A stretch of DNA of 64,000 nt from Thalassospira lucentensis. GTDB taxonomy: Bacteria > Pseudomonadota > Alphaproteobacteria > Rhodospirillales > Thalassospiraceae. The translations under genes and the position numbers were made by a program. Shown here in pieces: positions 46,257 through 60,372 of the stretch (position 1 is its first letter; each line of letters starts with the position of its first letter). The notes beneath the pieces were generated by a model. The model was given only the letters and a program-made list of their open reading frames with translations, searched no databases and was not told the origin of the DNA. Location of the stretch: the NCBI RefSeq assembly GCF_011806425.1, contig NZ_JAATOV010000003.1, forward strand, positions 310,001 through 374,000, written 5' to 3'.

Positions 46257-46324
46257 AGTTCCCTCTTTCAGATTGGGAAAATAAAATCCGCTTAACATAC
46301 AAACGTCCCGAAACCCGGGATGTT

Positions 46325-46354
46325 CCCCCAAAATGGAACTGTCCAGATTGGGGG
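46325..46354 (-). promoter_or_regulatory. Hairpin in the ectA-ectB gap
   Basis: CCCCCAA - 16 bases - TTGGGGG, next to a second small stem TCCCG/CGGGA at 46306-46320. They may set the mRNA ratio of ectA to ectBC-ask by processing or partial termination. Confidence 0.45.
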
Positions 46355-46385
46355 ATTAAAGCGGTAAAAAATGAGTTTGGAAGGA

Positions 46386-46934
46386 TTAGGCGGCGACGCG
46401 TTCGACGTCTTCACGTTCGAACGGACCGATCTGCCAAAGAATTTCACTGGCAGCCGCACCGTCAAAATGGGTTTCACGTTCGAACTGAACTTTGCGCTTG
46501 ATATCCGCGTCAAGTTCGCGTGCCACAGAACGGAACACACCCTGTGAAGGGGCATTGGTTGACGTGATCGTCGTGTTGAGCTGGCTCACGTCATGGCAAA
46601 CCGAACGATCCAAGATATCAAGGATCAAGCGTTTCGCCAGACGAAGGCCGCGGGCCTTGGGCGAAACAGCAACCTGCCAGATGAACAGCTGCTCACGCTT
46701 ATTTGGGACGATATAACCAGATACAAAGCCAACGGCTTCGCCGTCGAGTTCTGCGATCGCGCATGTGTCGCCAAAATGCGAACACTGCAGCAAGTTGCAG
46801 TACATAGAGTTTTCATCCAATGGCTTGCAGTCGGCGATCAGTGCATTGACCGTCGCGCCGTCAGTGGCCTTCGGTTTCCGGATAACTAAGTTGGCTTTGC
46901 GGCCGGTGTTGCCGTTGTTGTTGGCAATTTTCAT
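46386..46934 (-). CDS. ectA: L-2,4-diaminobutyrate acetyltransferase
   Basis: A GNAT acetyltransferase of 182 residues making N-gamma-acetyl-diaminobutyrate. It has the EctA pattern IRKPKATDGATVNALIADCKPLDENSMYCNLL, CAIAELDGEAVGFVSGYI, WQVAVSPKARGLRLAKRL and LNTTITSTNAPSQGVFRSVAREL. The ATG at 46934 has GGGCAG upstream; the ATG at 46970 has no ribosome-binding site. It is the first gene of the operon; no ectD hydroxylase is present in the cluster. Confidence 0.95.
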   Translation of the reverse strand: MKIANNNGNTGRKANLVIRKPKATDGATVNALIADCKPLDENSMYCNLLQCSHFGDTCAIAELDGEAVGFVSGYIVPNKREQLFIWQVAVSPKARGLRLAKRLILDILDRSVCHDVSQLNTTITSTNAPSQGVFRSVARELDADIKRKVQFERETHFDGAAASEILWQIGPFEREDVERVAA

Positions 46935-46985
46935 CGGTCTGCCCGTTCTGTTATTTCGATAAGCGATCATTTATGTCGCGCAAGA

Positions 46986-47014
46986 TGTATAGAACGTCGA
47001 TGCATTTTGATCAA
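46986..47014 (-). promoter_or_regulatory. Promoter of ectA
   Basis: On the minus strand: TTGATC, 17 bases, TATACA. Four of six bases match at each element. Transcription would begin near 46979, about 45 bases before the ectA ATG. Confidence 0.6.
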
Positions 47015-47079
47015 CCCTTTCTCGGTGAAAATAATGTGAAATAACATAAGTTATTGTTTTTGCTGGATATATAAATTGA

Positions 47080-47167
47080 TCGAAGTTCGATGTTGATGGA
47101 TCGATATTGCTGACATATTTCGATCATAAAATAACGAACATCGATGAAATAAAATATCGAAAATCGA
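47080..47167. repeat. Cluster of TCGA-centred repeats between ectA and ectR
   Basis: TCGA occurs at 47080, 47087, 47101, 47120, 47141, 47157 and 47164, mostly as ATCGA or TTCGAT in AT-rich sequence. An eighth copy is at 46998 in the ectA promoter spacer. TTCGATGTT (47086-47094) and AACATCGA (47137-47144) form an inverted pair. A likely binding region for the adjacent MarR-type regulator. Confidence 0.5.
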
Positions 47168-47187
47168 TGGAAGATGGCCTAAAACCG

Positions 47188-47216
47188 TTGCGGTTTGGGC
47201 GCTCGGGGGGTAAAAC
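47188..47216 (+). promoter_or_regulatory. Candidate promoter of ectR
   Basis: TTGCGG, 17 bases, TAAAAC; the -10 matches four of six. It is about 40 bases before the ectR ATG and beside the TCGA repeats. Confidence 0.45.
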
Positions 47217-47257
47217 AGCTTTTGTAACAAGACAACAATTGATGCCCGGAAATTCAA

Positions 47258-47734
47258 ATGGACAAATTGCATGAGGCGCTGATTTCTATCCGCCGCATTC
47301 TTCGCGCGAGCGATATTCACGCAAAAAAACTTGGTAAAGTGACTGGATTAAAAACGTCGCAGCTTCTGGTGTTGCAGTCGCTAGAAGAGTTTGGCGAGAT
47401 GACGGTTGGCCAGATTGCGGCCAAGGTTAATCTGGCGCAGGCATCAACAACCGCACTGGTCGATAAGCTTCAGAAGATGGAGCTTGTGTTGCGCGCACGC
47501 GGCGACACCGACAAGCGCAAAGTCTATGTCCGTTTGACCGAGGAGGGGCGCTCAATCCTTGATCGCGCGCCGATCGCACTGCATGACAGGTTTTCTGATA
47601 AATTCAACAGCCTTGAAGAATGGGAGCAAACATTCTTGATTGCCGCACTTCAGCGCGTTTCAGGCATGATGGATGCCAGCGATATCGATGTCGCGCCGCT
47701 TCTTGATCATGATGTGATTGTCGAAAAGCATTAA
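47258..47734 (+). CDS. ectR: MarR-family regulator of ectoine synthesis
   Basis: A 158-residue winged-helix regulator, with helix-turn-helix MTVGQIAAKVNLAQASTTALVDKLQKMELVLRARGDTDKRKVYVRLTEEG (about 48-97, here quoted only to locate it in pieces: MTVGQIAAKVNLAQ, then STTALVDKLQKM, then RGDTDKRKVYVRLT). It is divergent from ectABC-ask, the same layout as EctR1 of methylotrophs, a MarR-type repressor of ectoine genes. Regulation of the operon is inferred from position and family. A terminator follows the gene. Confidence 0.85.
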   Translation: MDKLHEALISIRRILRASDIHAKKLGKVTGLKTSQLLVLQSLEEFGEMTVGQIAAKVNLAQASTTALVDKLQKMELVLRARGDTDKRKVYVRLTEEGRSILDRAPIALHDRFSDKFNSLEEWEQTFLIAALQRVSGMMDASDIDVAPLLDHDVIVEKH

Positions 47735-47875: not shown

Positions 47876-49009
47876 TTATTCCGGTGGGATCGCGTTTTTC
47901 AAGGCCTTGCGGCTCATATGATGTTGGAACCATTTGGCCATGATGGGGGCAAGCAGGACGATTTCAAAAATGCGCACAATGTGATGAAACGCAACAAAGC
48001 TTGGCTCAATATTTAGCGCAAGGGCGATTAGCGACATCTCAGCCACGCCACCGGGCGCAAATGCCAGTAAAACGGCAATGAAATCAAGGTCGAGCCACTG
48101 CGAAACCATCCAGGCAACGCCGCCCGTAAAGGCCAGAATAACCACAGTCGCAAAGATCGAATAACCAGCCAAACGGGCCAAAAATGATAGTTTAACCCCG
48201 GCAAAGCGGCTGCCGATGGCAGCACCAAGGATCAGAAGGCTACCGGCGAGTAACCATTCTGGTAGATTGCCTTCTACGACACCTGTCACGTGCAAAACCA
48301 TGCTGGCGAGCATCGCTCCCGTCATATAAGCGGCAGGCACACGCAGCTTACGAAACACTAAAACCGTGATCAGGGCCGCAAAGCCCGTCAAAATGCCTTC
48401 GGACAATGTCATATAGACCGCGTCACCATCACCATGGCCGCTTGCGACCACGCCGGTGATCATAAGAACGATAAGCGGGGCCGACATCACCAAAAGCAAG
48501 ACGCGCAAGCCTTGCGTGAGTGCGATTTCCTGTTCGTTGCCACCAGCCGCAGCACCCAGAACAACCATCGGGGTTAACCCGCCCGGTGTTGCGGAAAACA
48601 GGGCGGTTGCCGGATCAAGTCGGGCGATTTTGACGTAAAACCACGTGACAATAACGGTAATGATCGGAACGTAGATCAAAACTGCGATCATGCTGATGGG
48701 CCAAAGGGCTGCTTGATCAAGCGTTTCGGGTGTGAAAGACCCGCCCAGAAAAATGCCAATCACCCCCAAGATGACGGAACGAAATTCCATGGGAATGCGC
48801 ATCTGAACGCGCATCAAGCTTGCGATAAAGGTGGCCAACATTGGGCCCATCATCCAGGCCAAAGGCATATTGATACTATGGGCGATCAAGCCACCGACTA
48901 GTCCGATACCAAGTGCAATTGAAAGTCGTTTAAGGAAGGTTGGTGTCAGGACACCCGATAAACGATTGATCCAGCTGTTTTTAGATGGATCTTCGGGGGC
49001 TGTGGTCAT
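47876..49009 (-). CDS. AbrB-family membrane protein
   Basis: A 377-residue membrane protein of the PF05145 type (often labelled 'ammonia monooxygenase' or AbrB), not related to the Bacillus regulator AbrB. Two homologous halves of about five helices are seen, each with the pattern '[12 protein letters not shown]...' and '[15 protein letters not shown]'. [19 protein letters not shown] is repeated as [19 protein letters not shown] in the second half. The function is unproven; a transport role is likely. Its ATG overlaps the stop of the chemoreceptor gene by four bases, so it is the last gene of a probable tctCBA-mcp unit. Confidence 0.85.
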
Positions 49010-50691
49010 GCGGTATCGGCCTTGTTTTTATTGATTTGGTCTAGGAAGCCATCAATTGCGTCCCGCAGACGGGATGCTTCGGTGTTAAGGGTGCTGGTGG
49101 CGCGTGTGACATTTTCCGAACCGTGATGTACCCGTGCCGTTTCGGAATCAAGGGCGTCAACAGCCTCGGCCACGGTACGCATGCCGCCATTCGCATCATG
49201 AATGCGATCCGAAATGCCCGAGGTGGAGGCTTGTTGTTCTTCAACAGCCGACGCAATGGCTGCAGCGGATTGATCAACTTCACCAATCACATCCGCAACG
49301 CTTTGCAAGGCGTTGACAACATTATCCGTTAGGCCGCGAATTTCATCAACTTGGTTTGAAATATCCTCGGTCGCGCGGGCGGTTTGCGATGCAAGATTTT
49401 TAACCTCGCCCGCGACAACGGCGAACCCCTTGCCAGCGTCGCCCGCGCGTGCGGCTTCAATCGTCGCGTTCAGGGCCAGAAGGTTGGTCTGGTTGGCGAT
49501 GTCTTCGATTAGGCTCACGATATCGCCGATGCGTTGGGTGGCGTTGGTAAGCTGCTCAAACAAAGCCCGGGACTGTTCGCTTTCGGTGCGGGCTTTGCCA
49601 GCAACTTCGGCTGATGTTTGTGCCTGTTGGCCAATCTCGGCAATGGCTGCTGACAGGCTAGCCGTTGTTTGTGAAACCGCTTCAATATGATGCAGTACCT
49701 GTTCAGAGTGTTGATTGGCATCGGCTGAGCGAGCGCTGGCCGATGTTGCAATTTGCTCCATATCGCTGGCCGATCCGTTGAGTGACCCAAATTCACGGTC
49801 AAACCCGGAAAGGGCGTCCTGAACGGTCCGTTGAAAATGGTCGGTGGCGTGGATCAGGTCTTTTTGGCGTTCGCTGTCAATCGCGCGGACACGTTCGCGT
49901 TCTTTGCGCAGTGTTTCGGCCTCTTTGGATTGGTCGCGCAGAACGGTGACAGACCGTGCAACCGTGCCGATTTCATCGCGGCGCTGAACACCCCGAACAT
50001 CAATATTCAAATCGCCGTTGGCAATCTGTTCGATCAACTGGGCAAGATCGGTCATTGGCCGCGAAATACGCCGAGAGACAAAGACCGCAACGACCCCAGC
50101 CAGCAGCACAACAATTACCGCGACAATCACGAAAATCCGTTGAACCGCATCGGCACGTGACACTGCATCGGCAAAGGATGTTTGTGCCAATGCGTGGGTC
50201 TGGGTCAAAATTTGGTTAAGGGGAACTTGAAGGGCGCGGAATGTCTCATCGGCCTTGGCGATGACTTCGAGCGCGCCATAGATGTTCATTTCGCTTTCAA
50301 CCAGGAACTGATCGACCTGGTCGATATATGTTTTGTAATTATCGGTGAATTCATCGCCGCCGACAACGGCAAGGCGTTCCGCCAGCGGGGCAAGGTCGTC
50401 TGAAATGTGGCTGGCCTGTTCGCGCAATTCTGGGACAGCAGCAGCATTGATGCCATTGGAATCCCACGTCAGGATACGAAATAGGGACCCGTGCACCTCG
50501 TTTAAGGCATTGCTGAGCGTAAGGGCGTCAGATCGTCTTTCGTAAGCTTCGACGCGAAGGCTGGCAAGCGTGCGTTTCTCACTTTCGAGGGTGGCAACCG
50601 TTGCAATTCCCATTGCAACGATCACAACCATCAAAAAAACCGGGACCAGAAGTGTTTTTGGGCCAATCGCAAGGTTATCGAGAAAGCGCAT
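49006..50691 (-). CDS. Methyl-accepting chemotaxis protein
   Basis: A 561-residue chemoreceptor. A membrane helix at about 12-33 is followed by a periplasmic four-helix-type sensor region (about 34-185), a second helix near 188-208, HAMP (about 209-262) and the signalling domain. The highly conserved hairpin tip reads [20 protein letters not shown], then [20 protein letters not shown]. There is no C-terminal NWETF-like pentapeptide. It begins only 36 bases after tctA, with AAGGG ahead of the ATG, so it may be cotranscribed with the transporter and report on the same ligand. Confidence 0.93.
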
Positions 50692-50727
50692 TCATTCAGT
50701 CCCTTCGCGTCATAAGCTGTTGAGATC

Positions 50728-52263
50728 TTAGATCTCACCATCGTTTGGTACAGATTTACGGTTCTTCATCCAAAGACGCAGATTGCCGATCAATGGTGCC
50801 GCCAAGAACAAGGCGCTGATCAAAAGGATCACAAGGGTAATCGGACGTTCCCAAAGGAAGGCCAGCGACCCGTCGCTGATCATTAGGGCGCGCCGCAGAT
50901 TTTCTTCCATCATGCTGCCCAGAATGAAGCCCAGTAGCATCGGCGCCATCGGGTAGTTCAAAAGGCGCAGGCCGATGGCAATGGCCGCGGCGATGACCAT
51001 CATGTGAATATCAAAGGCGTTAAAGGTCACCAGATAAACACCGATCAACGAGAAGAACAGAACGAACGGGACCAGCAACTGCTGCGGCAGTGCCAACAGG
51101 CGCGAGATGTATGGGATGAGCGGTAGGTTCAGCACCAGAAGAACAATGTTGCCGATATACATCGAAATGATCACGGACCAGAATACTTCTGGCTGTTCAA
51201 CAAACAGGCGCGGGCCCGGCTGAACACCATACGAAATCAGCGCCCCCATCATGACCGCCGTGGTCCCGGAGCCCGGAATGCCAAGGGTCAAAAGCGGCAC
51301 GAAAGAGCCAGAGCATGCTGCGTTATTCGCGGTTTCAGGGGCGGCAAGACCACGGATGGAGCCCTTGCCAAACTGAAGCTTTTCTTTGGCAGATGCGATG
51401 TTGCGTTCCATGCCGTAAGCAAGGAAAGATGCGATCGTTGCACCCGCACCAGGCAAAACGCCGGTAAAGAAGCCAAGCACCGAAGACCGGCCAATGACCG
51501 GCACCATGGTTTTAACTTCTTCTTTCGAAAGCTTCATCGAACCAAGGTTTTTAAGCGCGCGTTCCTCGTCAGAACGGGTGTCCTTGGTTGGGCGCAGGAT
51601 CGAGAGCAGGGCCTCGGACAGTGCGAAGGTCGACATGGCAAGCAAAAGGAAGCTGATGCCGTCAACAAGGTCCATATTGCCAAAGGTAAAGCGCGCAACG
51701 CCCGCCGCCGGATCGGTGCCAATGGTCGACAACATGATGCCAAACAGCGTCATGGTGATGGCCTTAAGAACCTGTCCCTTTCCGGCAAAGGCCGATACGG
51801 CGGTAAGCCCCAAGACCATTAGCGCGAAATAATCACCTGATTGGAACGACAAAGAAACAGACGCAAGGGCAGGGGCCGCGACCAGCAAGAAAATCGCGGC
51901 AATCGTTCCACCCGAGAATGAGGAATAAGCAGCAATTGCAAGTGCCTTACCCGCCTGGCCTTTTTGTGCCATTGGATAACCGTCGAAGGCGGTTGCAACG
52001 GTGCCCGCAACGCCCGGTGCGTTAATCAGGATCGACGATGTCGAGCCGCCAAAAATGGCGCCGTAATACACACCAGCCATCAAGATCAGACCCGTTGATG
52101 GATCAAAGCCATAGGTGATCGGGATCATCAACGCAATTGCGGTGATCGGACCAAGCCCCGGCAACATGCCGATAAACGTCCCGGCAAAGCAGCCCAAAGC
52201 AACCATCATCAGGTTGATCGGCATGACAGCGGTCGAAAGACCGGAGAAAATTCCTTCAAGCAT
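50728..52263 (-). CDS. tctA: Tripartite tricarboxylate transporter, large permease TctA
   Basis: A 511-residue membrane protein with about twelve helices, the main channel of a TTT-family importer. GMLPGLGPITAIALMIPITYG near residue 34, GVYYGAIFGGSTSSILINAPG and the second-half repeat FTGVLPGAGATIASFLAYGMER are its hallmarks. The ATG at 52263 is preferred over a longer frame. It follows tctB by ten bases. TTT systems import citrate, other carboxylates or aromatic acids, driven by an ion gradient. Confidence 0.95.
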   Translation of the reverse strand: MLEGIFSGLSTAVMPINLMMVALGCFAGTFIGMLPGLGPITAIALMIPITYGFDPSTGLILMAGVYYGAIFGGSTSSILINAPGVAGTVATAFDGYPMAQKGQAGKALAIAAYSSFSGGTIAAIFLLVAAPALASVSLSFQSGDYFALMVLGLTAVSAFAGKGQVLKAITMTLFGIMLSTIGTDPAAGVARFTFGNMDLVDGISFLLLAMSTFALSEALLSILRPTKDTRSDEERALKNLGSMKLSKEEVKTMVPVIGRSSVLGFFTGVLPGAGATIASFLAYGMERNIASAKEKLQFGKGSIRGLAAPETANNAACSGSFVPLLTLGIPGSGTTAVMMGALISYGVQPGPRLFVEQPEVFWSVIISMYIGNIVLLVLNLPLIPYISRLLALPQQLLVPFVLFFSLIGVYLVTFNAFDIHMMVIAAAIAIGLRLLNYPMAPMLLGFILGSMMEENLRRALMISDGSLAFLWERPITLVILLISALFLAAPLIGNLRLWMKNRKSVPNDGEI

Positions 52264-52273
52264 TTCTTTCGCC

Positions 52274-52747
52274 TTAACCCAGCATTTCGAAGATGTCACC
52301 CGGCGCCAGATAAATGCCCATCAGTTGGGTCAACAGGTACCAGAAAATGAAAACAACGGGGATGGATGCCCCCAGCAGAACCTTGATCCGGCGTTCGCCA
52401 AGAACGGCAAAACCACCAACCAAGAAGATTGTGGTCGAGATCAGGAAGCCGAGATAGCGAATGGAAAATCCGTAAAAGACCATCAGGATGCCGAGCTGAA
52501 AAACGCGCCCCCATTTCAGGCCTTTGAAGGCAGAAGAAAGTTTGCCAGCTTCTTGATTGGCCGGCATAACCAGTTGAACGAAGGAAACCACACCTAAAAG
52601 CCAAGCAAGCGCATTAGGAAGAGTTTGGGCGTTAAACGGCGCATCTTCGTCGCCAAACAGCAACGGGATATCATCGACATAAAACCCGTATATCAGCGCA
52701 AGGCACAGAAACAGCATTGCGCCGAATTTGTCACGATTGATCGACAT
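52274..52747 (-). CDS. tctB: Tripartite tricarboxylate transporter, small permease TctB
   Basis: A 157-residue membrane protein with four helices: FGAMLFLCLALIYGFY at the start, LPNALAWLLGVVSFVQLVM, VFQLGILMVFYGFSIRYLGFLISTTIF and a final VVFIFWYLLTQLMGIYL. Low sequence conservation is usual for TctB; assignment rests on size, topology and position between tctC and tctA. Confidence 0.88.
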   Translation of the reverse strand: MSINRDKFGAMLFLCLALIYGFYVDDIPLLFGDEDAPFNAQTLPNALAWLLGVVSFVQLVMPANQEAGKLSSAFKGLKWGRVFQLGILMVFYGFSIRYLGFLISTTIFLVGGFAVLGERRIKVLLGASIPVVFIFWYLLTQLMGIYLAPGDIFEMLG

Positions 52748-52792
52748 GGAGTGGTTTCCCTCAGAAGGTCTTTTTATCGGTTTTCTAATGGC

Positions 52793-53791
52793 TTACTTCA
52801 GGAAGCCAAGGTCGCGCATCAGATCGCCAACGACTTTTTCCTGGTTTTCCATAAAGCTTGAGAACTCCGCACGACCTTTATAGATTTTTTCCCAGCCGTT
52901 ACGCTTACGCACGGTTTCCCATTCCGGGGTTGCCTGCAAATCTTTAAGGAGTTTTGCATAGGCATCTGCTTTTTCATCCGAAAGAGCCGGGGAGCCGAAG
53001 TAACCGCGCCAGTTAACGAATTCCGCATCAATGCCGAGTTCGCCAAGTGCGGGTACGTCCGGCGCCGCTTCGATGCGTTCTTTTGACGTAACAGCAAGAA
53101 TGCGAACCTGACCTGCTTTGGCGAGTTCAAGAAGTTCACCAAGACCGGTCGACAGAACATCGGTTTCGCCCGACAGAAGACCCGCAATGGCTTTGCCACC
53201 GGCGTCATACGGGATGTATTTAACCTGTTTGGCATCACCGCCACCTTGTTGAACGGCATAGGCCGCAACAATGTGGTCCATACCGCCACGAACCGAGCCG
53301 CCGCCAAATTTGACAGCCGATGGGTCGGCTTTAACGGCCTCGACAACATCGGTGAAAGATTTAAGTTCGCTGTCTGCTGGGACGGCAAATGCCGCGTATT
53401 CAGCAACAACAGCAGCAATCGGCGTCAGGTCACGGAAGGACTGCGGAAATACACCAGTCAGCGAGCGCACGATGATCGGGGTGGAGTTGACCATCAAGGT
53501 GTTGTCGAGACGGTCGGCTGCTTCGATCATGTAGGCAATGGCTTTACCGCCGCCGCCACCAGACATGTTTTCATAGGATGCAGTGCCAACCAGACCAGAC
53601 TTGGTCAGGGCTTCGCCCGTGCCACGTGCAGTACCGTCCCAGCCGCCGCCTGCGCCGCCCGGAATGATGAAGTGAATTTCATCCATTTCTGCGGCCTTGG
53701 CATGTTGGGTACCAAAAGCAGCAGCCGAAACAGCAACAGCAGTTGCTGCAACCATAAATCCGCGACGCGAGAACATCGTCAGCTTATTCAT
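52793..53791 (-). CDS. tctC: Tripartite tricarboxylate transporter binding protein TctC
   Basis: A 332-residue periplasmic receptor of the Bug/TctC family. The signal peptide has a twin-arginine motif (SRRGFM) before a hydrophobic stretch ending GTQHAKA, suggesting Tat export of the folded protein. The mature part has IHFIIPGGAGGGWDGTARG, the Bug-family ligand-loop pattern, and VKFGGGSVRGGMDHIVAAY. GGAGGAG precedes the ATG at 53791. It is the first gene of the tctCBA operon; the ligand is unknown. Confidence 0.93.
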   Translation of the reverse strand: MNKLTMFSRRGFMVAATAVAVSAAAFGTQHAKAAEMDEIHFIIPGGAGGGWDGTARGTGEALTKSGLVGTASYENMSGGGGGKAIAYMIEAADRLDNTLMVNSTPIIVRSLTGVFPQSFRDLTPIAAVVAEYAAFAVPADSELKSFTDVVEAVKADPSAVKFGGGSVRGGMDHIVAAYAVQQGGGDAKQVKYIPYDAGGKAIAGLLSGETDVLSTGLGELLELAKAGQVRILAVTSKERIEAAPDVPALGELGIDAEFVNWRGYFGSPALSDEKADAYAKLLKDLQATPEWETVRKRNGWEKIYKGRAEFSSFMENQEKVVGDLMRDLGFLK

Positions 53792-53823
53792 CAGGGTCTC
53801 CTCCAGACACAAAAGCATTTTCC

Positions 53824-53846
53824 CATGCCACCAAACTGGTGGCATG
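53824..53846. promoter_or_regulatory. Palindrome in the tctC leader
   Basis: CATGCCACC - AAACT - GGTGGCATG, perfect over nine bases per arm, about 35 bases upstream of the tctC start. It could be an RNA hairpin or a protein-binding site. Confidence 0.5.
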
Positions 53847-54013
53847 CCGACCATAAAGGACAGAACTTCGGCAACGGAGAACGCTAACGACCCATCAGGC
53901 GCGTAAACGCAACCTGCCTATCGAAATTGAAACTAAGTCCTCCCTTGCCGATATTCTTATTTTTGATCCTTGGGGTTTACCCCTGATCGGCAGTGGTAGG
54001 ACGTTAACAGCCA

Positions 54014-54033
54014 AACCTGTCACCAACCTGTCA
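54014..54033 (-). promoter_or_regulatory. Tandem 9-base repeats upstream of tctC
   Basis: AACCTGTCA occurs at 54014-54022 and again at 54025-54033, an 11-base period. On the coding strand of tctC this reads TGACAGGTT twice. Eleven-base tandem spacing is the classic form of OmpR/PhoB-family binding sites, and TctD, encoded 4.3 kb away, is of that family. It lies about 225 bases before the tctC start. Confidence 0.5.
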
Positions 54034-54115
54034 TCGGTCGAAATCAGGTGAAAAAAAGGCATATGTTTTGTGATGTTGTGGCACAAATTGGTTTTAAATG
54101 GCGGAAAATGGAGCC

Positions 54116-54796
54116 TTAAGCCGACAGAGAGCGACCGCAATCAACTGCATGAGATTGCAACAGAGCCAATGTCTTAATCCGAACTTCAGATGTAAAACGG
54201 CTTGCGGGGCCCGACAAAGTTAAAACACCAAGCATCTGTTTATGACGATCTAAAACCGGAACCGCGATGGCCGAAATATCGGGGTCACGTTCTCCGTTGC
54301 TTTGTGCAAAACCGGCCTGCAGGACTTCAAGGGCGCGGTCATCAATCCCGTTTCCCCATGCCCGAATGACGTGTCCGGCAGCCCCGCGATCGGTCGGTAA
54401 TATCGCACCTTCTTCCAGATGATGGCGCAGGCTGCGCGATGAGTTTTCGCGAAACAGACACAAACGATTTGATCCTTCCGGGATGTAGAAGGACGCGGTT
54501 TCGCCGCTTTCCTCGACAAGTGCGGCCAGATGCGGGCGCACAATGTCATCCATCCGAAAAGAGCGCCGGTAGATGGAGCCAAGGCGCCACAAGGCAGGGC
54601 CCAATCGATACCGGCCACGTCCCGAAATCATTAGAAAACCGTGCGACTCTAATGTGCCGGCCAGCCGCGACAGGGTGCTTTTGTACATGCCGGTGCGTTC
54701 AGAAAGGTCTTTGAGCGAAAGGTCCGCATCCTGATCAGTAAAGGCATCGAGGATCATAAGGGCGCGCTCAACGGCACTAACATTCTGTTCTGACAT
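54116..54796 (-). CDS. IclR-family transcriptional regulator
   Basis: A 226-residue regulator. The N-terminal winged helix has SAVERALMILDAFTDQDADLSLKDLSERTGMYKSTLSRLAGTLESHGFL-type pattern (residues about 7-55), and the C-terminal effector domain has ARPHLAALVEESGE-like and AIAVPVLDRHKQMLGVLTLSG segments. AGGAAAA precedes the ATG at 54796. It diverges from the CoA-transferase gene over a 119-base region with a palindrome, and so probably controls it and its own gene. Confidence 0.9.
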   Translation of the reverse strand: MSEQNVSAVERALMILDAFTDQDADLSLKDLSERTGMYKSTLSRLAGTLESHGFLMISGRGRYRLGPALWRLGSIYRRSFRMDDIVRPHLAALVEESGETASFYIPEGSNRLCLFRENSSRSLRHHLEEGAILPTDRGAAGHVIRAWGNGIDDRALEVLQAGFAQSNGERDPDISAIAVPVLDRHKQMLGVLTLSGPASRFTSEVRIKTLALLQSHAVDCGRSLSA

Positions 54797-54866
54797 CTGT
54801 TTTCCTGTTTTGTCGCGGCATCTAAATGGGCGGGATATAAACACGCCATTTTGCAATGGACCGAAA

Positions 54867-54881
54867 TTCTATATAATAGAA
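54867..54881. promoter_or_regulatory. Palindromic site between iclR and CoA-transferase gene
   Basis: TTCTAT - ATA - ATAGAA, a perfect 15-base palindrome of the size bound by IclR-family dimers. It lies 35 bases before the CoA-transferase ATG. A close copy of its right side is found at 60485-60502. Confidence 0.55.
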
Positions 54882-54915
54882 CCTAATTCTACCAGACGGA
54901 ATTTTAGGAAATATC

Positions 54916-56133
54916 ATGCAAAACACCAAACCGCTTCATGGCATCACGGTTTTGGACCTGACCAATGTGCTTGCTGGACCGTTCTGTTGTCACCAATTGG
55001 CGCATTTGGGGGCGACGGTGATTAAGGTCGAAGCCCCCGGACGTGGCGATCTGGCCCGTCAATTGGGCGCAGATGGTGCGTTAAATGAAAAACTGATGGG
55101 CGTTTCGTTTCTGGCGCAAAACGCGGGCAAGAAATCAGTTACGCTGAACTTAAAAGACCCGCGCGGCAAAGATATTTTAAAAAAGTTGGTAAAGCAGGCC
55201 GATGTTTTGGTTGAGAATTTCCGACCGGGTGTGATGGATCGCCTTGAACTGGGCTATGACGTCTTGGCCAAGGTGAACCCGGCACTGATTTATTGCGCCA
55301 TATCCGGGTTTGGCCAAAGCGGCCCGATGAAAAAACTGCCGGCCTATGATCAGATCGTTCAGGGCCTGTCGGGGATTATGACCATCACCGGCGAAGAAGA
55401 TCAGCAAACCTATCGGGTCGGCTATCCGGTTGCCGATACCATTGGTGGTTTGACCGCGGCCTGCGCGATTAGTTCTGCCATCGCGGGCAGGGCGCTCGGT
55501 AACAATGACGGCAAGGGCAGCTTTATCGATATTTCGATGCTGGAATCCGTTATTGCGACCATGGGCTGGGTGGTTTCAAATTTTCTGATTGCCGGTCAAA
55601 AGCCCACTGCAAATGGCAATGATAATTTCACGTCCTCCCCATCTGGCACATTTCGCACCCAAGATGGGCAGATCAATATTGCCGCCAATAAACAAGAACA
55701 GTTTGAAGCCGTTTGTGACGTGCTGGATGTTCCTGACCTTAAAGCTGATGCCAAATTCCTAACCCGGTCTGACAGGCTTGCCAATCGGGCGGTTTTGGCA
55801 GGGTTGCTTGAAGACGCACTTCAAACCCGGCCCACAGATCATTGGGTATCCGCATTTAATGCGGCAGGTGTTCCGGCAGGGGCGGTTTTAACCGTGCCGC
55901 AGGCTCTTTCATTACCGCAAATTGCCGATCGCGGCATGATTGCCGATTTTGCCGAAGTTCCAGGGGTTGAGCGCGATATTCGTGTTTTACGCACCGGTAT
56001 GAAGCTGAACGGTGAAGCACCCAGTGTTGATGCGCCGCCGCCAGTTTTAGGACAGGACAACATCGATATCCTAAGCGGCTTGGGATTTAGTGAGGGCGAG
56101 ATCGATATGTTGAAATCGGAGGGCGTACTATGA
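54916..56133 (+). CDS. Class III (CaiB/BaiF family) CoA-transferase
   Basis: A 405-residue enzyme of the family that moves CoA between acyl-CoA and a free acid. The N-terminus is GITVLDLTNVLAGPFCCHQLAHLGATVIKVE, with NFRPGVMDRLELGYD at 101-115. The probable catalytic aspartate is Asp174 in GYPVADTIGGLTAA. The stop overlaps the following lyase gene by four bases, so the two are translated together. It most likely activates a carboxylate imported by TctABC as its CoA ester, using for example succinyl-CoA or acetyl-CoA as donor. The exact substrate is not known. Confidence 0.92.
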   Translation: MQNTKPLHGITVLDLTNVLAGPFCCHQLAHLGATVIKVEAPGRGDLARQLGADGALNEKLMGVSFLAQNAGKKSVTLNLKDPRGKDILKKLVKQADVLVENFRPGVMDRLELGYDVLAKVNPALIYCAISGFGQSGPMKKLPAYDQIVQGLSGIMTITGEEDQQTYRVGYPVADTIGGLTAACAISSAIAGRALGNNDGKGSFIDISMLESVIATMGWVVSNFLIAGQKPTANGNDNFTSSPSGTFRTQDGQINIAANKQEQFEAVCDVLDVPDLKADAKFLTRSDRLANRAVLAGLLEDALQTRPTDHWVSAFNAAGVPAGAVLTVPQALSLPQIADRGMIADFAEVPGVERDIRVLRTGMKLNGEAPSVDAPPPVLGQDNIDILSGLGFSEGEIDMLKSEGVL

Positions 56134-56978
56134 GCGACAAAACCGCAAATGATGTCGAACAAGAAGTTTCCGATTGGTGGCAAAGTTCGATCATCGAGAT
56201 GAAGCCCGGTGAAATTCACTATTCGGGGTATGCGATCGAAGATTTGATCGGCAATATCAGTTTCCCGGCGATGATCTGGTTAATGACGCGCGGCGATTTA
56301 CCAAGCCCTAGTCAGGCAAAGTTGCTAGAAGCCGCCTTGGTGTCCGCTGTTGACCACGGTCCGCAAGCGCCAAGCATTGCAATTGCCCGGATGGCGGCAA
56401 CATGTGGTGTCGGCCTTAACAATGCGATGGCCAGTGCGGTCAACGTGCTCGGTGATGTGCATGGCGGCGCGGGTGAGCAGGCCGTCGCCCTGTACCATGA
56501 TATCGCGCACCGCATAGAGGCAGGGACGCCGATTGAACAAGCCGTTTCAGACGCCCTTGATCATCAAATCGCCGAACATGGCAAACATATTCCCGGGTTT
56601 GGCCATCGTTTTCATCCCACCGATCCGCGTGCGCCCCGGTTATTGGGGCTTGTCGCGGATGCTGCCAAAGACGGGGTTGTTTCGGGCGTTTTTGGTCAGA
56701 TCGCCCAAGAAGTCGAAAAGGCACTTGAGGCCCGAAAGGGCAAAAAAATCCCGATGAATATCGATGGCGCAACGGCCGTGATCTATGCTGAACTTGGATT
56801 TGATGCGCCATTGGCCCGTGGATTATTTTGCCTATCGCGGTCAGTCGGCATTTTGGCCCATGCATGGGAGCAAACCCAGCAAGGTGGGCGAAACAAGGGA
56901 CCAATCCCGCGTCGCATGATCTGGACCTATTCAGGTCGCGAACATCGTTCAGTACCAGACGACAAGATTGATGAATAA
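56130..56978 (+). CDS. Citryl-CoA lyase-like protein (citrate synthase fold)
   Basis: A 282-residue, shortened citrate-synthase-fold protein. The three catalytic residues of citrate synthase can be matched: His111 in GDVHGGAGEQ, His159 in PGFGHRFHPTDPR and Asp212 in PMNIDGATAVIYAELG. It lacks the long N-terminal region of hexameric citrate synthases and resembles citryl-CoA lyase (Ccl), which splits citryl-CoA to acetyl-CoA and oxaloacetate. Coupling to a CoA-transferase supports cleavage of a CoA ester formed in the previous step. Citryl-CoA is the default guess; a homologue with another side chain is possible. Confidence 0.88.
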   Translation: MSDKTANDVEQEVSDWWQSSIIEMKPGEIHYSGYAIEDLIGNISFPAMIWLMTRGDLPSPSQAKLLEAALVSAVDHGPQAPSIAIARMAATCGVGLNNAMASAVNVLGDVHGGAGEQAVALYHDIAHRIEAGTPIEQAVSDALDHQIAEHGKHIPGFGHRFHPTDPRAPRLLGLVADAAKDGVVSGVFGQIAQEVEKALEARKGKKIPMNIDGATAVIYAELGFDAPLARGLFCLSRSVGILAHAWEQTQQGGRNKGPIPRRMIWTYSGREHRSVPDDKIDE

Positions 56979-57012
56979 AATATTCTATATCAACGGCCTG
57001 GCAGGGTAACTT

Positions 57013-58140
57013 TTAGCGCCTATTTAAAAGGGCATCCTGCCAGTGGCGGATAAAACGCTGCCGCTTGGCCTGATCAAGATAGACCAGCAAGCCGGGGCCG
57101 AGCGGGAAAGACCGCACCCGTTCGCCGTAGCGATCAAAGATCAGCGATGAAAACGGGCTAGGGGCCACATCTGCCCGCACTGGGTTAAAATTCCCAGCAT
57201 CTTGCAGCACACTTTGTCCTTCGACCGACAATAGATAATCAAGGAAGCGCGCGCCAATGTTCGGGCTGCGCGCGCCACGCGGAATAACGGCAATCCGTGA
57301 ATATACGACAATAAAGTCATCTGGCAGGATGACGCCAAGATTTGGGGATCGCTGACTAAAGGTTTCCGCGTATGAGCCGAGCAAGTTGTAGCCCAGCACA
57401 ACCTGACCTTCGGCGATTTTTTCAAGCATTGGCGAGGTGTTAGAATAGAGCTTTACCTTTGATTGGCCCAATTGACGCACGAAATCCCAGACACCCGGGA
57501 AAAACCGTTCATCACGTGCGAGAAACAGAAAGCCAACGCCGCTGCGCTCTATGTCATAGGTGGTAACTTTTTCGCTGAGTAACTCGTCATTTGTGCGCAA
57601 AAGCTCGAGAAAAGCTTCGCGGGTTCGCGGCGGCTCAAGCCCGTTTTCGCGAAAGAATTCCCGGTTATAAGCAATGACAGCGGGCTCCTGTGTGACGGCA
57701 AATGCTTCGTTGCGCCAGCGTGCCCAGCTTGGCAATGCCTCTGTTTGCGGGCTTTTATGGGCTATGGCATAGCCGTCATTGGCAAGCTTCATCTGCAAAT
57801 CCATTGATGAACTGATGATAAGGTCGGCATGCGGCCCGCCGTTGGCCCGCGCCTTGACCGTCATGTCATACATCTCAAGCGTTTGAAGCTGATGATATTC
57901 GATGGCAACGGTTGGGTTGATTTCTTGGAATGCTTCGATCGCCGGTCTAAACGCGCCAATATCGGCAGAACCATAAACAACCGCGACCTGATTGGCTTCA
58001 CTCAGAAGAGTTTGTTCCGGTCCGTTTTGTTGCTGCTTTGCCTGTGGGGCAGGGAAGGTAAACACTTCTGCCAGGGCAGAAGATGCTTGCATCGCGATAG
58101 CAATGACACATAAACGAATACAAGAACGGCCCAAGGTCAT
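57013..58140 (-). CDS. Orphan periplasmic substrate-binding protein
   Basis: A 375-residue exported binding protein of the Fe(III)/extracellular solute-binding type (type II fold). The signal peptide ends at about ASSALA. The mature part contains VAVVYGSADIGAFRPAIEAFQE, DLIISSSMDLQMKLANDGYA and PAVIAYNREFF, then IPRGARSPNIGARFLDYLLSVEGQSVL. No ABC permease or ATPase is nearby; it faces away from tctDE across a 150-base divergent region. A plausible role is as ligand sensor for the TctE kinase, as in similar gene neighbourhoods. AGGA lies nine bases before the ATG. Confidence 0.85.
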   Translation of the reverse strand: MTLGRSCIRLCVIAIAMQASSALAEVFTFPAPQAKQQQNGPEQTLLSEANQVAVVYGSADIGAFRPAIEAFQEINPTVAIEYHQLQTLEMYDMTVKARANGGPHADLIISSSMDLQMKLANDGYAIAHKSPQTEALPSWARWRNEAFAVTQEPAVIAYNREFFRENGLEPPRTREAFLELLRTNDELLSEKVTTYDIERSGVGFLFLARDERFFPGVWDFVRQLGQSKVKLYSNTSPMLEKIAEGQVVLGYNLLGSYAETFSQRSPNLGVILPDDFIVVYSRIAVIPRGARSPNIGARFLDYLLSVEGQSVLQDAGNFNPVRADVAPSPFSSLIFDRYGERVRSFPLGPGLLVYLDQAKRQRFIRHWQDALLNRR

Positions 58141-58171
58141 CGTGTATTATCCTATGTCGCAAGGTGTCTGT

Positions 58172-58199
58172 GATCGACAATTGATACCGATCATCAATT
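58172..58199. promoter_or_regulatory. Direct repeats in the binding protein-tctD divergent region
   Basis: GATCGACAATT (58172-58182) and GATCATCAATT (58189-58199), nine of eleven bases identical, 17 bases apart. A candidate regulator site between the two divergent genes. Confidence 0.4.
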
Positions 58200-58291
58200 A
58201 CCTATCATCCGCCAGAATGATAGCTTTGGCGCGGTTGCGCCAAGTATCGAAAACACGACTATCGGTTTATCAGGGAAGAGTTAGACAAACA

Positions 58292-58957
58292 ATGAGAGTC
58301 CTCGTCGTCGAAGATCACGCCGCATTGGCAGATGGTATCGCTCGATCGCTTCGGCAGTCTGGCTATGCTGTTGATGTGATTGCCGACGGGGAAGAAGCCG
58401 ACGATATTTTGCGTACCCAAGAATATGGGTTGGTGGTGCTTGATTTAAACCTGCCCAAACTTGACGGTTTGGAAATCCTGCGCCGTTTGCGCCATCGCGG
58501 TGCGGAAAGTGCTGTGCTTATTTTGACCGCGCGCGGCGATATCGAAGACCGGGTCAAGGGCCTTGATCTTGGTGCGGATGATTATTTGGCCAAACCCTTT
58601 GAGCTGGTTGAACTTGAAGCACGTGTTCGCGCCCTGATGCGGCGCAATGCGGGCACGCACAACACCCAAATCAAATGCGGTCAGTTGGTGTTTGATAGCG
58701 TTGCAAGGCGGGTTACAGTCAATGGCGACGATGTTGACATACCGCGCCGTGAATTAAAAATCCTTGAAATCCTGCTTTTGCGGTTGGGGCATGTGCTCAG
58801 CAAGGAACAGATTGCCGATCAACTGGCTGGATTTGAAGACGATATCAGTGCCAATGCGGTTGAGCTTTATATCAGCCGTTTGCGTAAACGTGTTGAAGCG
58901 GCGGAAGTTAGAATTCAGACAGTCCGCGGCCTTGGATATTTGTTGAAAAAGACATGA
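58292..58957 (+). CDS. tctD: OmpR-family response regulator TctD
   Basis: A 221-residue response regulator. The receiver has acidic pocket EDH at 7-9, phosphorylation site Asp51 in VVLDLNLPKLDG, and KPFELVELEARV. The C-terminal winged helix runs from about 125 (CGQLVFDSVARRVTVNG) to DIPRRELKILEILLLRLGHVLS and IRTVRGLGYLL-like end. TctD/TctE pairs control TctABC carboxylate transporters in enteric bacteria. The ATG at 58292 matches the family start; the longer frame is not homologous. The stop overlaps the kinase start by four bases. Confidence 0.93.
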   Translation: MRVLVVEDHAALADGIARSLRQSGYAVDVIADGEEADDILRTQEYGLVVLDLNLPKLDGLEILRRLRHRGAESAVLILTARGDIEDRVKGLDLGADDYLAKPFELVELEARVRALMRRNAGTHNTQIKCGQLVFDSVARRVTVNGDDVDIPRRELKILEILLLRLGHVLSKEQIADQLAGFEDDISANAVELYISRLRKRVEAAEVRIQTVRGLGYLLKKT

Positions 58958-60372
58958 AATGGCGTAACGGATCGCTTCGGCGAAGGCTTGTTATCTGGCT
59001 TCTGATCCCGCTTTTGGTGATCAGTTCGCTGATGCTGCTTGAAGTGCGCAGTAATGCAGTGCATTCGACAAATCAAGCATTTGACCGTGCACTTTTAAGT
59101 TCCGCATTAGCAATTGCCGACCGGGTTGTGTTGATCGGGGGCAAGATCGAGGTCGATGTGCCTTATGTCGCGCTTGAGATGCTGACAAGCTCTGCCGAAG
59201 ACCGTGTATTTTATCAGGTCAGTACCATTCAAGGCGACTTTATCACCGGATATGAAGACCTGCCGCCAATACCCGACGCGTTATTGCCGCTGCGTGAAGA
59301 GCCAGTGTTCTATGATGCTGTCTATAACGGTGAGAATGTCCGTATTGGCGCCTTGTCACGCTATGTCGCAAGCGTGCGAAAAGCCACGCGTTTTCAGGTG
59401 TTTGTCGCCGAAACCATGGGCACACGCACAAGCCTAAGCGAAGATATCCTTGCCAGTGCAGCCGCCCGACAAATCGTTTTGATTACCATTGCGGCTGTTA
59501 TTGTGTGGTTTGGCATCGGGCAGGGGCTAAAACCGCTCACCCGGCTGGAAGAAGCCCTTAATCGGCGATCGCCAACTGACTTGCGGCCTATTGAACATGA
59601 TGTGCCCAATGAAGTGCGGCATCTCGTTGGCGCGATTAATCATCTATTTCAGCGGCTTGGCAATAGTTTGGCAACCATGCAACGCTTTACAGCGGATGCG
59701 GCCCATCAGTTGCGGACACCGTTGGCAGCGCTTCGAACGCAATCTGAGCTTGGCCTTCGTGAAGATGATCCTGAAAAACTCCATCAGATTATGGCCACCA
59801 TTGCGACATCAACCCAGCAAACATCGCATTTGGCCAATCAATTACTGGCATCCGCACGCGCAGCACCCGAAGGTCTTGCAGGACGTCCGTTTGAGAAAAT
59901 AGATCTGTGTGAAATCACCCGGAACGTAACCGCGTCCAAAGTCATGAGTGCCATCGAAAGCGGTATCGACCTTGGTTATGAGGGCGTCACAGAACCTGTG
60001 CTGATCCTGGGGAACGCGACCCTGATTGAGGAGCTTTTAAAAAACCTGGTGCACAACGCGCTAACATACTGCCCACAGGGAAGTGCGGTGACCGTCAGAC
60101 TTATCAAAGACGCGGCCGATAACAGTGTGACGCTCATGGTCGAGGATAATGGCCCGGGTATTCCTGAAAAATACCGCAAGGATGTGTTTAAGCGGTTTTA
60201 TCGCATTGCCGAGAACAATCAGGATGGCTGCGGCCTTGGGTTGTCCATCGTCCGCGAAATCTCATTGCGACACCATACATCTGTCGCACTAACAACGGCG
60301 GACGGACACAGTGGGTGTATATTCTCTGTGCGGTTTAACATTGCTGATGCGAACGCGCAGGCATCGATCTAA
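58954..60372 (+). CDS. tctE: Sensor histidine kinase TctE
   Basis: A 472-residue membrane kinase. The first helix is at about 12-29, followed by a periplasmic sensor region (30-170) of the TctE type with RVFYQVSTIQGDFITGYEDLP and RVASVRKATRFQVFVAETM-like segments. A second helix lies at 172-190. The H-box has His251 in FTADAAHQLRTPLAALRTQSEL, and ATP-binding motifs are NLVHNALTY, VEDNGPGIPEKYR and GCGLGLSIV. It phosphorylates TctD on sensing an external carboxylate, perhaps through the adjacent binding protein. Confidence 0.92.
   Translation: MKWRNGSLRRRLVIWLLIPLLVISSLMLLEVRSNAVHSTNQAFDRALLSSALAIADRVVLIGGKIEVDVPYVALEMLTSSAEDRVFYQVSTIQGDFITGYEDLPPIPDALLPLREEPVFYDAVYNGENVRIGALSRYVASVRKATRFQVFVAETMGTRTSLSEDILASAAARQIVLITIAAVIVWFGIGQGLKPLTRLEEALNRRSPTDLRPIEHDVPNEVRHLVGAINHLFQRLGNSLATMQRFTADAAHQLRTPLAALRTQSELGLREDDPEKLHQIMATIATSTQQTSHLANQLLASARAAPEGLAGRPFEKIDLCEITRNVTASKVMSAIESGIDLGYEGVTEPVLILGNATLIEELLKNLVHNALTYCPQGSAVTVRLIKDAADNSVTLMVEDNGPGIPEKYRKDVFKRFYRIAENNQDGCGLGLSIVREISLRHHTSVALTTADGHSGCIFSVRFNIADANAQASI

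What the first reader, a model, noticed from the sequence alone, without database searches (positions are those of the whole stretch)
47876..60372. Candidate module for sensing, import and CoA-dependent cleavage of an unknown carboxylate
Seen: tctC-tctB-tctA, a chemoreceptor 36 bases downstream and an AbrB-family protein overlapping it on one strand; then iclR, a class III CoA-transferase overlapping a citryl-CoA-lyase-like gene by four bases, an orphan binding protein and tctDE. Known: TctDE controls TctABC; citryl-CoA lyase splits citryl-CoA. Inference: the imported acid is activated by CoA transfer and cleaved to an acyl-CoA and an oxo acid. Aerobic bacteria do not need this for citrate, so the substrate may be a citrate analogue such as citramalate or an alkyl-substituted citrate.
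Basis: partly seen in the sequence, partly recalled or inferred. Interest (0 to 1): 0.75.

Follow-up and report, generated by a model that had tools for sequence, protein, structure and literature searches.

The report
Citrate sensing, import and cleavage module
A marine Thalassospira bacterium carries a compact gene set that looks built to sense, import and split citrate by an unusual CoA-transferase route that bypasses aconitase and classical citrate lyase; parts of the set recur in unrelated bacteria, but the chemistry has not been tested.

Summary
The genes are present as described and form a real module. A class III CoA-transferase gene overlaps a lyase gene by 4 bp; the lyase passes the NCBIfam 'citryl-CoA lyase' cut-off (471 bits, cut-off 261). 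In an even sample of 398 genomes, 21 carry the lyase over its cut-off. Of 18 outside Thalassospira, 11 have the CoA-transferase adjacent; 5 of these 11 have TctA within 10 kb (0.21 expected), against 0 of the 7 without it. Three of the 11 also carry the orphan binding protein with tctDE.

The orphan binding protein is a homologue of the Mg2+-citrate-binding protein MctA; all six MctA residues mutated in the solved structures are identical in it. The lyase keeps basic residues expected for a dicarboxylic oxo acid.

I also find a tandem operator over the CoA-transferase promoter; elsewhere its motif occurs in 8 of 13 loci with a divergent iclR and 0 of 60 others.

Best reading: metal-citrate sensing, TTT import, CoA transfer to citrate, retro-Claisen cleavage to oxaloacetate and acetyl-CoA. 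No step has been assayed.

The parts
47876..49009 (-). AbrB-type duplicated membrane protein (PF05145/TIGR03082); companion of TTT genes in some other loci
   Evidence: present in 16 of 16 Thalassospira-type loci and 4 of 60 other CoA-transferase-adjacent loci of the set, 0 of 11 in the even sample
49006..50691 (-). methyl-accepting chemotaxis protein; only the signalling half and HAMP have family matches
   Evidence: seen in 16 of 16 Thalassospira-type loci and 0 of 82 others at a strict threshold
50728..52263 (-). tctA, large TTT membrane subunit (ORF listed from GTG 52299; ATG 52263 more likely)
   Evidence: PF01970 510 bits
52274..52747 (-). tctB, small TTT membrane subunit
   Evidence: PF07331 54.9 bits
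52793..53791 (-). tctC, TTT solute-binding protein; SRRGF in the leader looks like a Tat signal (motif recalled); ORF listed from 53854
54014..54033 (-). direct repeat TGACAGGTT-N2-TGACAGGTT upstream of tctC; candidate TctD site
   Evidence: perfect; expected 0.03 in the window at up to 3 mismatches; only perfect copy in the genome; three others have 3 mismatches, and the reversed control pattern has one match; conserved in the 10 sequences aligned
54116..54796 (-). iclR-family regulator, divergent from the CoA-transferase (ORF listed from TTG 54856)
54850..54877 (+). promoter-like TTTGCA-16-TATAAT for the CoA-transferase/lyase pair; the -10 lies inside operator O1
   Evidence: 10 of 12; 6 promoter-like sites found in the region against 4.1 expected, so a consensus match only
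54867..54881 (.). operator O1 TTCTATATAATAGAA (6-3-6 inverted repeat)
   Evidence: alone is weak (14 of 100 shuffles have a match), conservation carries the claim
54887..54901 (.). operator O2 TTCTACCAGACGGAA, 20 bp after O1, same half-site type with two departures in the window
54916..56133 (+). class III CoA-transferase, proposed citrate CoA-transferase; Asp174 aligns with the conserved Asp of the class
56130..56978 (+). citryl-CoA lyase (citrate-synthase fold, NF004864); H111, H159, R167, D212, R237 invariant in the 31-row alignment, K256 nearly so
57013..58140 (-). orphan periplasmic binding protein, homologue of Mg2+-citrate-binding MctA with S58, D60, S111, S200, T235, Y257 identical; proposed co-sensor
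58292..58957 (+). tctD, OmpR-type response regulator (named from its translation and position)
58954..60372 (+). tctE, sensor kinase with 2CSK_N sensor domain

Best explanation
A citrate catabolic module. Periplasmic citrate, probably as its Mg/Ca complex, is bound by the MctA-like protein, which signals to TctE (inferred). TctE-TctD switches on tctCBA, perhaps at the direct repeat 54014-54033 (inferred), and TctCBA imports citrate (family knowledge). The IclR protein holds down the CoA-transferase/lyase promoter through a tandem operator over the -10 box (site shown; binding and direction inferred) until an inducer releases it. Inside, the class III CoA-transferase moves CoA from a donor such as succinyl-CoA or acetyl-CoA onto citrate (inferred), and the lyase splits citryl-CoA by retro-Claisen cleavage into oxaloacetate and acetyl-CoA (fold and residues shown; activity not). 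Citrate would thus enter metabolism without aconitase, without ATP-citrate lyase and without CitDEF.
For: Lyase family and fold: NF004864 471 bits; nearest PDB sequence and fold H. thermophilus citryl-CoA lyase, then ATP-citrate lyase modules (TM-score 0.73 on the query; model pLDDT 91). Active-site residues conserved. CoA-transferase adjacent in 16/16 Thalassospira-type loci, 60/64 further loci, and 11/18 in the even sample. TctA within 10 kb in 5/11 of these against 0.21 expected from TctA counts, and 0/7 of sample lyases without the CoA-transferase. TTT-linked lyases are scattered over the tree: 8 label changes, at least 2 forced by well-supported branches, though fewer than in shuffles (14.1). 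Binding protein: 191.5 bits to MctA; six of six residues probed by mutation identical at 35% overall identity; it lies with tctDE again in 3 of 11 sample loci. Operator motif: 8/13 loci with divergent iclR, 0/60 others. No CitF match in the four Thalassospira genomes searched. Precedents seen: citrate is the commonest TTT cargo, and BctC acts both in transport and as co-sensor with BctE (PMC5812351 passages).
Against: No activity, binding or expression data. The CoA-transferase passes no NCBIfam cut-off among its listed matches. The same lyase family occurs without a CoA-transferase in another gene setting, so its substrate range may be wider than citryl-CoA. In the set only 14 of 60 CoA-transferase-adjacent loci have TctA within 10 kb; 32 have a TctC-type gene alone, which is weaker evidence because some of these genomes hold very many such genes (123 in C. 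metallidurans, PMC2864759 passage), and 14 have neither in the stretch held. Two of the four loci there without an adjacent CoA-transferase also have TctC within 10 kb. K256 as partner for the second carboxylate rests on recalled citrate-synthase numbering and an alignment with a one-residue shift. The S58 position is T, T and A in the three distant sample homologues. An organism with aconitase has no obvious need for the route. The chemoreceptor was seen only in Thalassospira.
Confidence: 0.6

Rival explanations
1. Same mechanism, but the substrate is a tricarboxylate citrate analogue (2-methylcitrate, hydroxycitrate, homocitrate); cleavage gives another acyl-CoA with oxaloacetate, or acetyl-CoA with a longer oxo diacid.
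For: Explains why an organism with aconitase would keep it; the lyase's residues for a second carboxylate fit all of these. In the same genome another TctDE-TTT set is tied to tricarballylate genes, so TctDE modules are specialised here.
Against: The MctA citrate site is fully kept in the binding protein; the nearest characterised enzymes use citryl-CoA. Neighbour maps gave no pointer to another acid, but most neighbours there were not annotated, so this is weak.
Confidence: 0.2
2. One reading: citramalate or a 2-alkylmalate (2-isopropylmalate) is CoA-activated and cleaved to acetyl-CoA and a mono-carboxylic oxo acid such as pyruvate.
For: Class III CoA-transferases that act on citramalate, mesaconate and itaconate are known (recalled); the best NCBIfam hits of the CoA-transferase include succinyl-CoA:mesaconate CoA-transferase, below cut-off (242 bits against 700).
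Against: R237 (invariant) and K256 (nearly invariant) are kept where citrate synthase holds the distal carboxylate of oxaloacetate (roles recalled); the known citramalyl-CoA lyases are CitE-like TIM barrels, not citrate-synthase folds (recalled); MctA-type sensor.
Confidence: 0.09
3. The binding protein belongs to an ABC importer encoded elsewhere and is a neighbour only; TctC and TctE alone do the sensing.
For: It has an ABC-type family profile and MctA itself is described as an ABC transporter protein (titles).
Against: Its neighbours in the window are the lyase and tctD, not a permease; no close paralogue in the genome (next match 26 bits); it stays with tctDE in 3 of 11 sample loci and with a TctD-type gene in L083.
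Confidence: 0.08
4. The pair runs in the synthetic or salvage direction (making citrate or recycling citryl-CoA), unrelated to the TTT genes beside it.
For: Retro-Claisen enzymes of this fold are reversible (general knowledge).
Against: Repeated TTT linkage in unrelated lineages; co-directional CoA-transferase and TctA/TctC in several loci; a separate 447-aa frame that looks like ordinary citrate synthase is present in the genome (not scanned against families).
Confidence: 0.03

Closest known systems
Citryl-CoA synthetase + citryl-CoA lyase (Hydrogenobacter thermophilus), and the C-terminal module of ATP-citrate lyase
   Same: Lyase of the same fold and catalytic residues; 6hxp is the best sequence and structure match.
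   Different: There CoA is attached with ATP and the enzymes serve the reductive TCA cycle or lipid synthesis (recalled); here a class III CoA-transferase sits in front and the setting is uptake and catabolism.
Classical citrate lyase CitDEF
   Same: Same proposed net cleavage of citrate to oxaloacetate and a C2 unit.
   Different: Acyl-carrier-protein complex, unrelated lyase fold (recalled); no CitF match in the four Thalassospira genomes searched.
TctDE-TctCBA of Salmonella, BctDE-BctCBA of Bordetella, TctDE of Pseudomonas aeruginosa
   Same: Two-component system controlling tricarboxylate uptake; in Bordetella a binding protein needed for signalling (PMC5812351 and PMC6403454, passages).
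   Different: An additional MctA-like binding protein beside tctD, and dedicated CoA-dependent catabolic genes in the same cluster.
MctA, Mg2+-citrate-binding protein (PDB 7f6e to 7f6u)
   Different: No permease beside it; found with TctDE instead.
Class III CoA-transferases (SUGCT, YfdE, FRC, mesaconate CoA-transferases)
   Same: Family PF02515, conserved Asp.
   Different: Below the cut-off of all seven NCBIfam models it matched; acceptor unknown.
tcu (tricarballylate) module in the same genome (L162)
   Same: Its own TctDE pair (TctE 40% identical), TctC, TctA.
   Different: Catabolic genes are TcuA, TcuB, a 4-oxalomesaconate tautomerase and an isocitrate-dehydrogenase-type protein; no match to the MctA-like model was found there.

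Membership tests
citryl-CoA lyase NF004864 | score above the curated cut-off | tested here: met
   471 bits against 261
citryl-CoA lyase NF004864 | catalytic His/His/Asp and citrate-binding Arg of the citrate-synthase fold | tested here: met
   H111, H159, R167, D212, R237 invariant in 31 rows; aligned with 6hxp and citrate synthases; roles recalled
citryl-CoA lyase NF004864 | cleaves citryl-CoA | not testable with these tools
   needs enzyme assay
class III CoA-transferase | PF02515 and conserved catalytic Asp | tested here: met
   383 bits, cut-off 23.3; Asp174 aligned with Asp in 10uh; its catalytic role is recalled
any named class III CoA-transferase (SUGCT, YfdE, mesaconate, formyl-CoA, carnitine) | curated NCBIfam cut-off | tested here: not met
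   seven models matched, none over its cut-off; best 285.5 bits against 750
tripartite tricarboxylate transporter | TctA, TctB and TctC together | tested here: met
tripartite tricarboxylate transporter | citrate as cargo | not testable with these tools
   TctC matches 11 solved TctC/Bug-type sequences of mixed or unknown ligand
TctDE two-component system | 2CSK_N sensor, HisKA, HATPase; partner OmpR-type regulator | tested here: met
   TctE domains; TctD by its position and sequence, not scanned against Pfam
MctA metal-citrate-binding protein | homology over the whole mature protein | tested here: met
MctA metal-citrate-binding protein | site residues S26, D28, S79, S164, T199, Y221 | tested here: met
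   all identical: S58, D60, S111, S200, T235, Y257
MctA metal-citrate-binding protein | binds Mg2+-citrate | not testable with these tools
   needs calorimetry or a co-crystal
classical citrate lyase CitDEF | CitF alpha subunit in the genome | tested here: not met
   no match in G000, G001, G014, G016

The most novel reading that the evidence does not exclude
An undescribed, ATP-free route of citrate catabolism, spread over several proteobacterial classes and Desulfuromonadales, in which a class III citrate CoA-transferase and a free-standing citryl-CoA lyase bypass aconitase. In Thalassospira and a few other genomes it is switched on by a metal-citrate-binding protein acting as co-sensor for TctE.
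Probability: 0.45. Interest if true: 0.62.

Novelty: new variant of a known kind. Interest (0 to 1): 0.5.

Why it matters
If true, many bacteria annotated only with 'CoA transferase' and 'citryl-CoA lyase' have an uncharacterised way to use citrate, an abundant acid in soils, root exudates and seawater (general knowledge), that needs neither aconitase nor ATP. It would give a function to a widespread orphan enzyme pair, make citrate an acceptor for class III CoA-transferases (my one search for a citrate CoA-transferase, listed four papers, none on this by title or abstract start), and offer a testable case of a metal-citrate-binding protein used for signalling rather than transport.

Tried and rejected
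Considered and set aside: citramalate as substrate (residues R237/K256 and the MctA-type sensor argue against it); reading the 'AbrB' gene as a DNA-binding regulator (it is the membrane protein); MCP ligand from sequence (no Pfam sensor domain; PDB matches lie mostly in the HAMP and signalling parts, only 6s18, an aromatic-acid chemoreceptor, spans 18-467); a genome-wide IclR regulon from the half-site pattern (6 palindromic sites in the genome against 8 for the reversed control pattern, so the motif alone is not informative and only conservation and position speak); a terminator signal (7 found, 6.2 expected); TctC ligand from PDB homologues. All-against-all clustering of neighbours in high-GC loci was dominated by spurious overlapping frames and was not used for counts.

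Literature: ten searches (terms as printed there) of the open-access library. For all but three papers I saw listings only (title, start of abstract); none of these shows the pair as a catabolic system, but the papers were not read. Passages only were seen of PMC2864759 (mentions citryl-CoA lyase to say the CO2-fixation route is absent), PMC6403454 and PMC5812351. No MctA paper was found; its ligand is taken from PDB titles.

Limits of the counts: the set is the best 80 of 251 confirmed loci, ranked by similarity, so it is not even; loci on short contigs may miss neighbours. The even sample is (398 genomes, 21 over cut-off; three are Thalassospira: G000, G014, G016; the other 18 were mapped as L142-L159; L160, below cut-off, and L161, the window's own, were left out of the counts). 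L150 counts as CoA-transferase-adjacent although its CoA-transferase scores only 212 bits. Neighbour calls use profiles built from these loci with fixed thresholds, so distant homologues can be missed, and the MCP threshold is strict. In L062, L070, L075 and L095 no adjacent CoA-transferase was found.
Full report
OBSERVATION. The window lies in a 4.5 Mb genome close to Thalassospira lucentensis and T. lohafexi (lyase 87% identical). The tctCBA genes, chemoreceptor and AbrB-type membrane gene run on the minus strand, with 36 bp and then a 4-bp overlap between the last three. iclR is divergent from the CoA-transferase, which overlaps the lyase by 4 bp. The binding-protein gene is convergent with the lyase and divergent from tctDE. 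The 'AbrB' gene is the duplicated membrane protein, not a regulator. Of 28 same-genus genomes searched, 22 have a lyase at 75% identity or more, 2 have a 68-69% copy and 4 have none of this kind.

IS IT A MODULE? The whole set occurs in the 16 Thalassospira-type loci of the similarity-ranked set. In the other 64 loci of that set the CoA-transferase is adjacent in 60; of these 60, 14 have TctA within 10 kb, 32 a TctC-type gene only, and 14 neither in the stretch held. TctC alone is weak evidence in genomes with very many TctC-type genes. Two of the 4 loci without an adjacent CoA-transferase also have TctC within 10 kb (L062, L095). For an even view I took the 398-genome sample of the phylum: 21 carry the lyase over its cut-off, 18 of them outside Thalassospira, and I mapped the surroundings of these 18. 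Eleven have the CoA-transferase adjacent. Of these, 5 have TctA within 10 kb, against 0.21 expected from the number of TctA genes and genome size (chance of 5 or more 5e-7 if genes lay at random), and 7 have TctA or TctC. Of the 7 without the CoA-transferase, none has either. Three of the 11 (L151, L157, L158) also carry the MctA-like protein with TctD and TctE. TTT-linked lyases are scattered over the lyase tree: 8 label changes, at least 2 forced by supported branches, fewer than the 14.1 of shuffled labels, so partly inherited and partly repeated (its bootstrap had not settled). Members include Enterovibrio, Grimontia and Desulfuromusa. Two loci examined, one Enterovibrio and one Desulfuromonadales MAG, carry a sensor kinase whose best NCBIfam match is the DcuS/MalK family, below its cut-off (425 and 452 bits against 520); that family senses di- and tricarboxylates (recalled). 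AbrB-type genes accompany the set in 4 of 60 other loci; the chemoreceptor was seen only in Thalassospira.

THE LYASE. It is a short citrate-synthase-fold protein. H111, H159, R167, D212 and R237 are invariant in 31 aligned rows, and the N-K256-G-P loop is nearly so. In citrate synthase, as I recall it, the residues corresponding to R237 and a basic residue about 20 further on, from the neighbouring subunit, hold the far carboxylate of oxaloacetate; here that place is taken by K256, and H. thermophilus citryl-CoA lyase also has a lysine there (one-residue shift). That favours a dicarboxylic product and speaks against citramalate. The predicted model (pLDDT 91) is nearest to H. thermophilus citryl-CoA lyase and then to ATP-citrate lyase modules (TM-score on the query 0.73 for the first, with a large overall rmsd of 10.7).

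THE BINDING PROTEIN. This was the most informative part. It has no close paralogue in the genome and no permease beside it. By sequence it matches an Agrobacterium protein (3c9h, 298 bits) and the 7f6e-7f6u series (191.5 bits for 7f6e). The structure library names these 'metal-citrate-binding protein (MctA) ... endogenously bound to Mg2+-citrate', with mutants S26A, D28A, S79A, S164A, T199A, Y221F and Y221A. All six positions are identical in the window protein, at 35% identity overall; five stay the same or S/T in all eleven aligned rows, and S58 is T, T and A in three. Because it sits against tctD and not against a permease, I infer a co-sensor role, for which Bordetella BctC/BctE is a precedent (PMC5812351 passages).

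REGULATION. Between iclR and the CoA-transferase, Thalassospira loci share a conserved block: TTCTATATAATAGAA followed 20 bp later by a second copy of the half-site type. In the window alone the first copy is weak evidence (14 of 100 shuffles have a match at up to one mismatch), and genome-wide the half-site pattern is no commoner than its control. A promoter-like TTTGCA-16-TATAAT has its -10 inside the first copy. What carries the claim is its distribution: outside Thalassospira I scanned 73 loci upstream of the CoA-transferase, and the motif (at most one mismatch) is in 8 of 13 loci with a divergent, adjacent iclR and in 0 of 60 others; resampled sequences give 0.05 loci on average. Two Pseudomonas and one gammaproteobacterial locus have the tandem form with the same 20-bp step. 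This is good evidence for an IclR-type operator; that it represses is inferred from its place over the -10. Upstream of tctC a perfect direct repeat, TGACAGGTT with an 11-bp period, is conserved in the 10 sequences aligned and is the only perfect copy in the genome; it suits an OmpR-type regulator such as TctD (inferred).

WHY NOT JUST ACONITASE? No CitF is found in the four Thalassospira genomes searched (of 14 pair-bearing genomes searched, two have a marginal partial match over the cut-off and one below it, 11 none). The same genome has a second TctDE-TTT set, but that one is tied to tricarballylate genes (TcuA, TcuB). So the module may be this organism's citrate system, delivering oxaloacetate and acetyl-CoA directly. 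That is a reasonable design, but it is an inference; I did not search the genome for other citrate carriers or for aconitase.

VERDICT. Observation confirmed. Interpretation partly supported: a sensing-import-cleavage module, yes; a non-citrate substrate, no support. Most likely citrate (0.6), with tricarboxylate analogues next (0.2). The lyase name already exists in NCBIfam. What is new is the CoA-transferase route, its regulation and the metal-citrate sensor, so I rate it a new variant of a known kind.

Noticed in passing
L148, L149, L154 (also L146, L152, L153 for the clade): In six genomes of one family the same lyase family occurs without the CoA-transferase and forms a 100/100 clade. In L148 it sits with TRAP-type genes (by eye), an IolG-like oxidoreductase, a QuiC-like dehydratase, AroE, a TIM-barrel isomerase-type protein, an acylating aldehyde dehydrogenase-like protein and a TPP enzyme; of those scanned against NCBIfam only AroE is seen to pass a curated cut-off. 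L149 and L154 look alike on the gene maps. Idea: a quinate/shikimate-type ring is opened to a citrate-like semialdehyde, made into an acyl-CoA by the dehydrogenase, and cleaved by the lyase.
   Followed up: partly
L162 (own genome C7:347000-366000): A second TctDE pair with TctC, TctA, a 4-oxalomesaconate tautomerase, an isocitrate-dehydrogenase-type gene, TcuA and TcuB: a tricarballylate-type module.
   Followed up: yes
L144: CoA-transferase/lyase pair next to a gene resembling MFS aromatic-acid/H+ symporters (below cut-off) and iclR instead of TTT genes: perhaps the same pair with another kind of importer.
   Followed up: no
L101:10828-11337: A half-length AbrB-type membrane protein (one repeat only) overlapping the lyase gene by 4 bp in a Desulfuromonadales locus.
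   Followed up: no
window 44973-47734: Genes that by their translations look like ectoine synthesis (ectA, ectB) with a MarR-type regulator, just beside the module; not scanned against families.
   Followed up: no
L110:10874-14070: In a Rhodospirillales MAG the pair is followed by genes whose translations look like hydroxyproline-degradation genes (dihydrodipicolinate-synthase type, amino-acid dehydrogenase, epimerase); not scanned against families.
   Followed up: no
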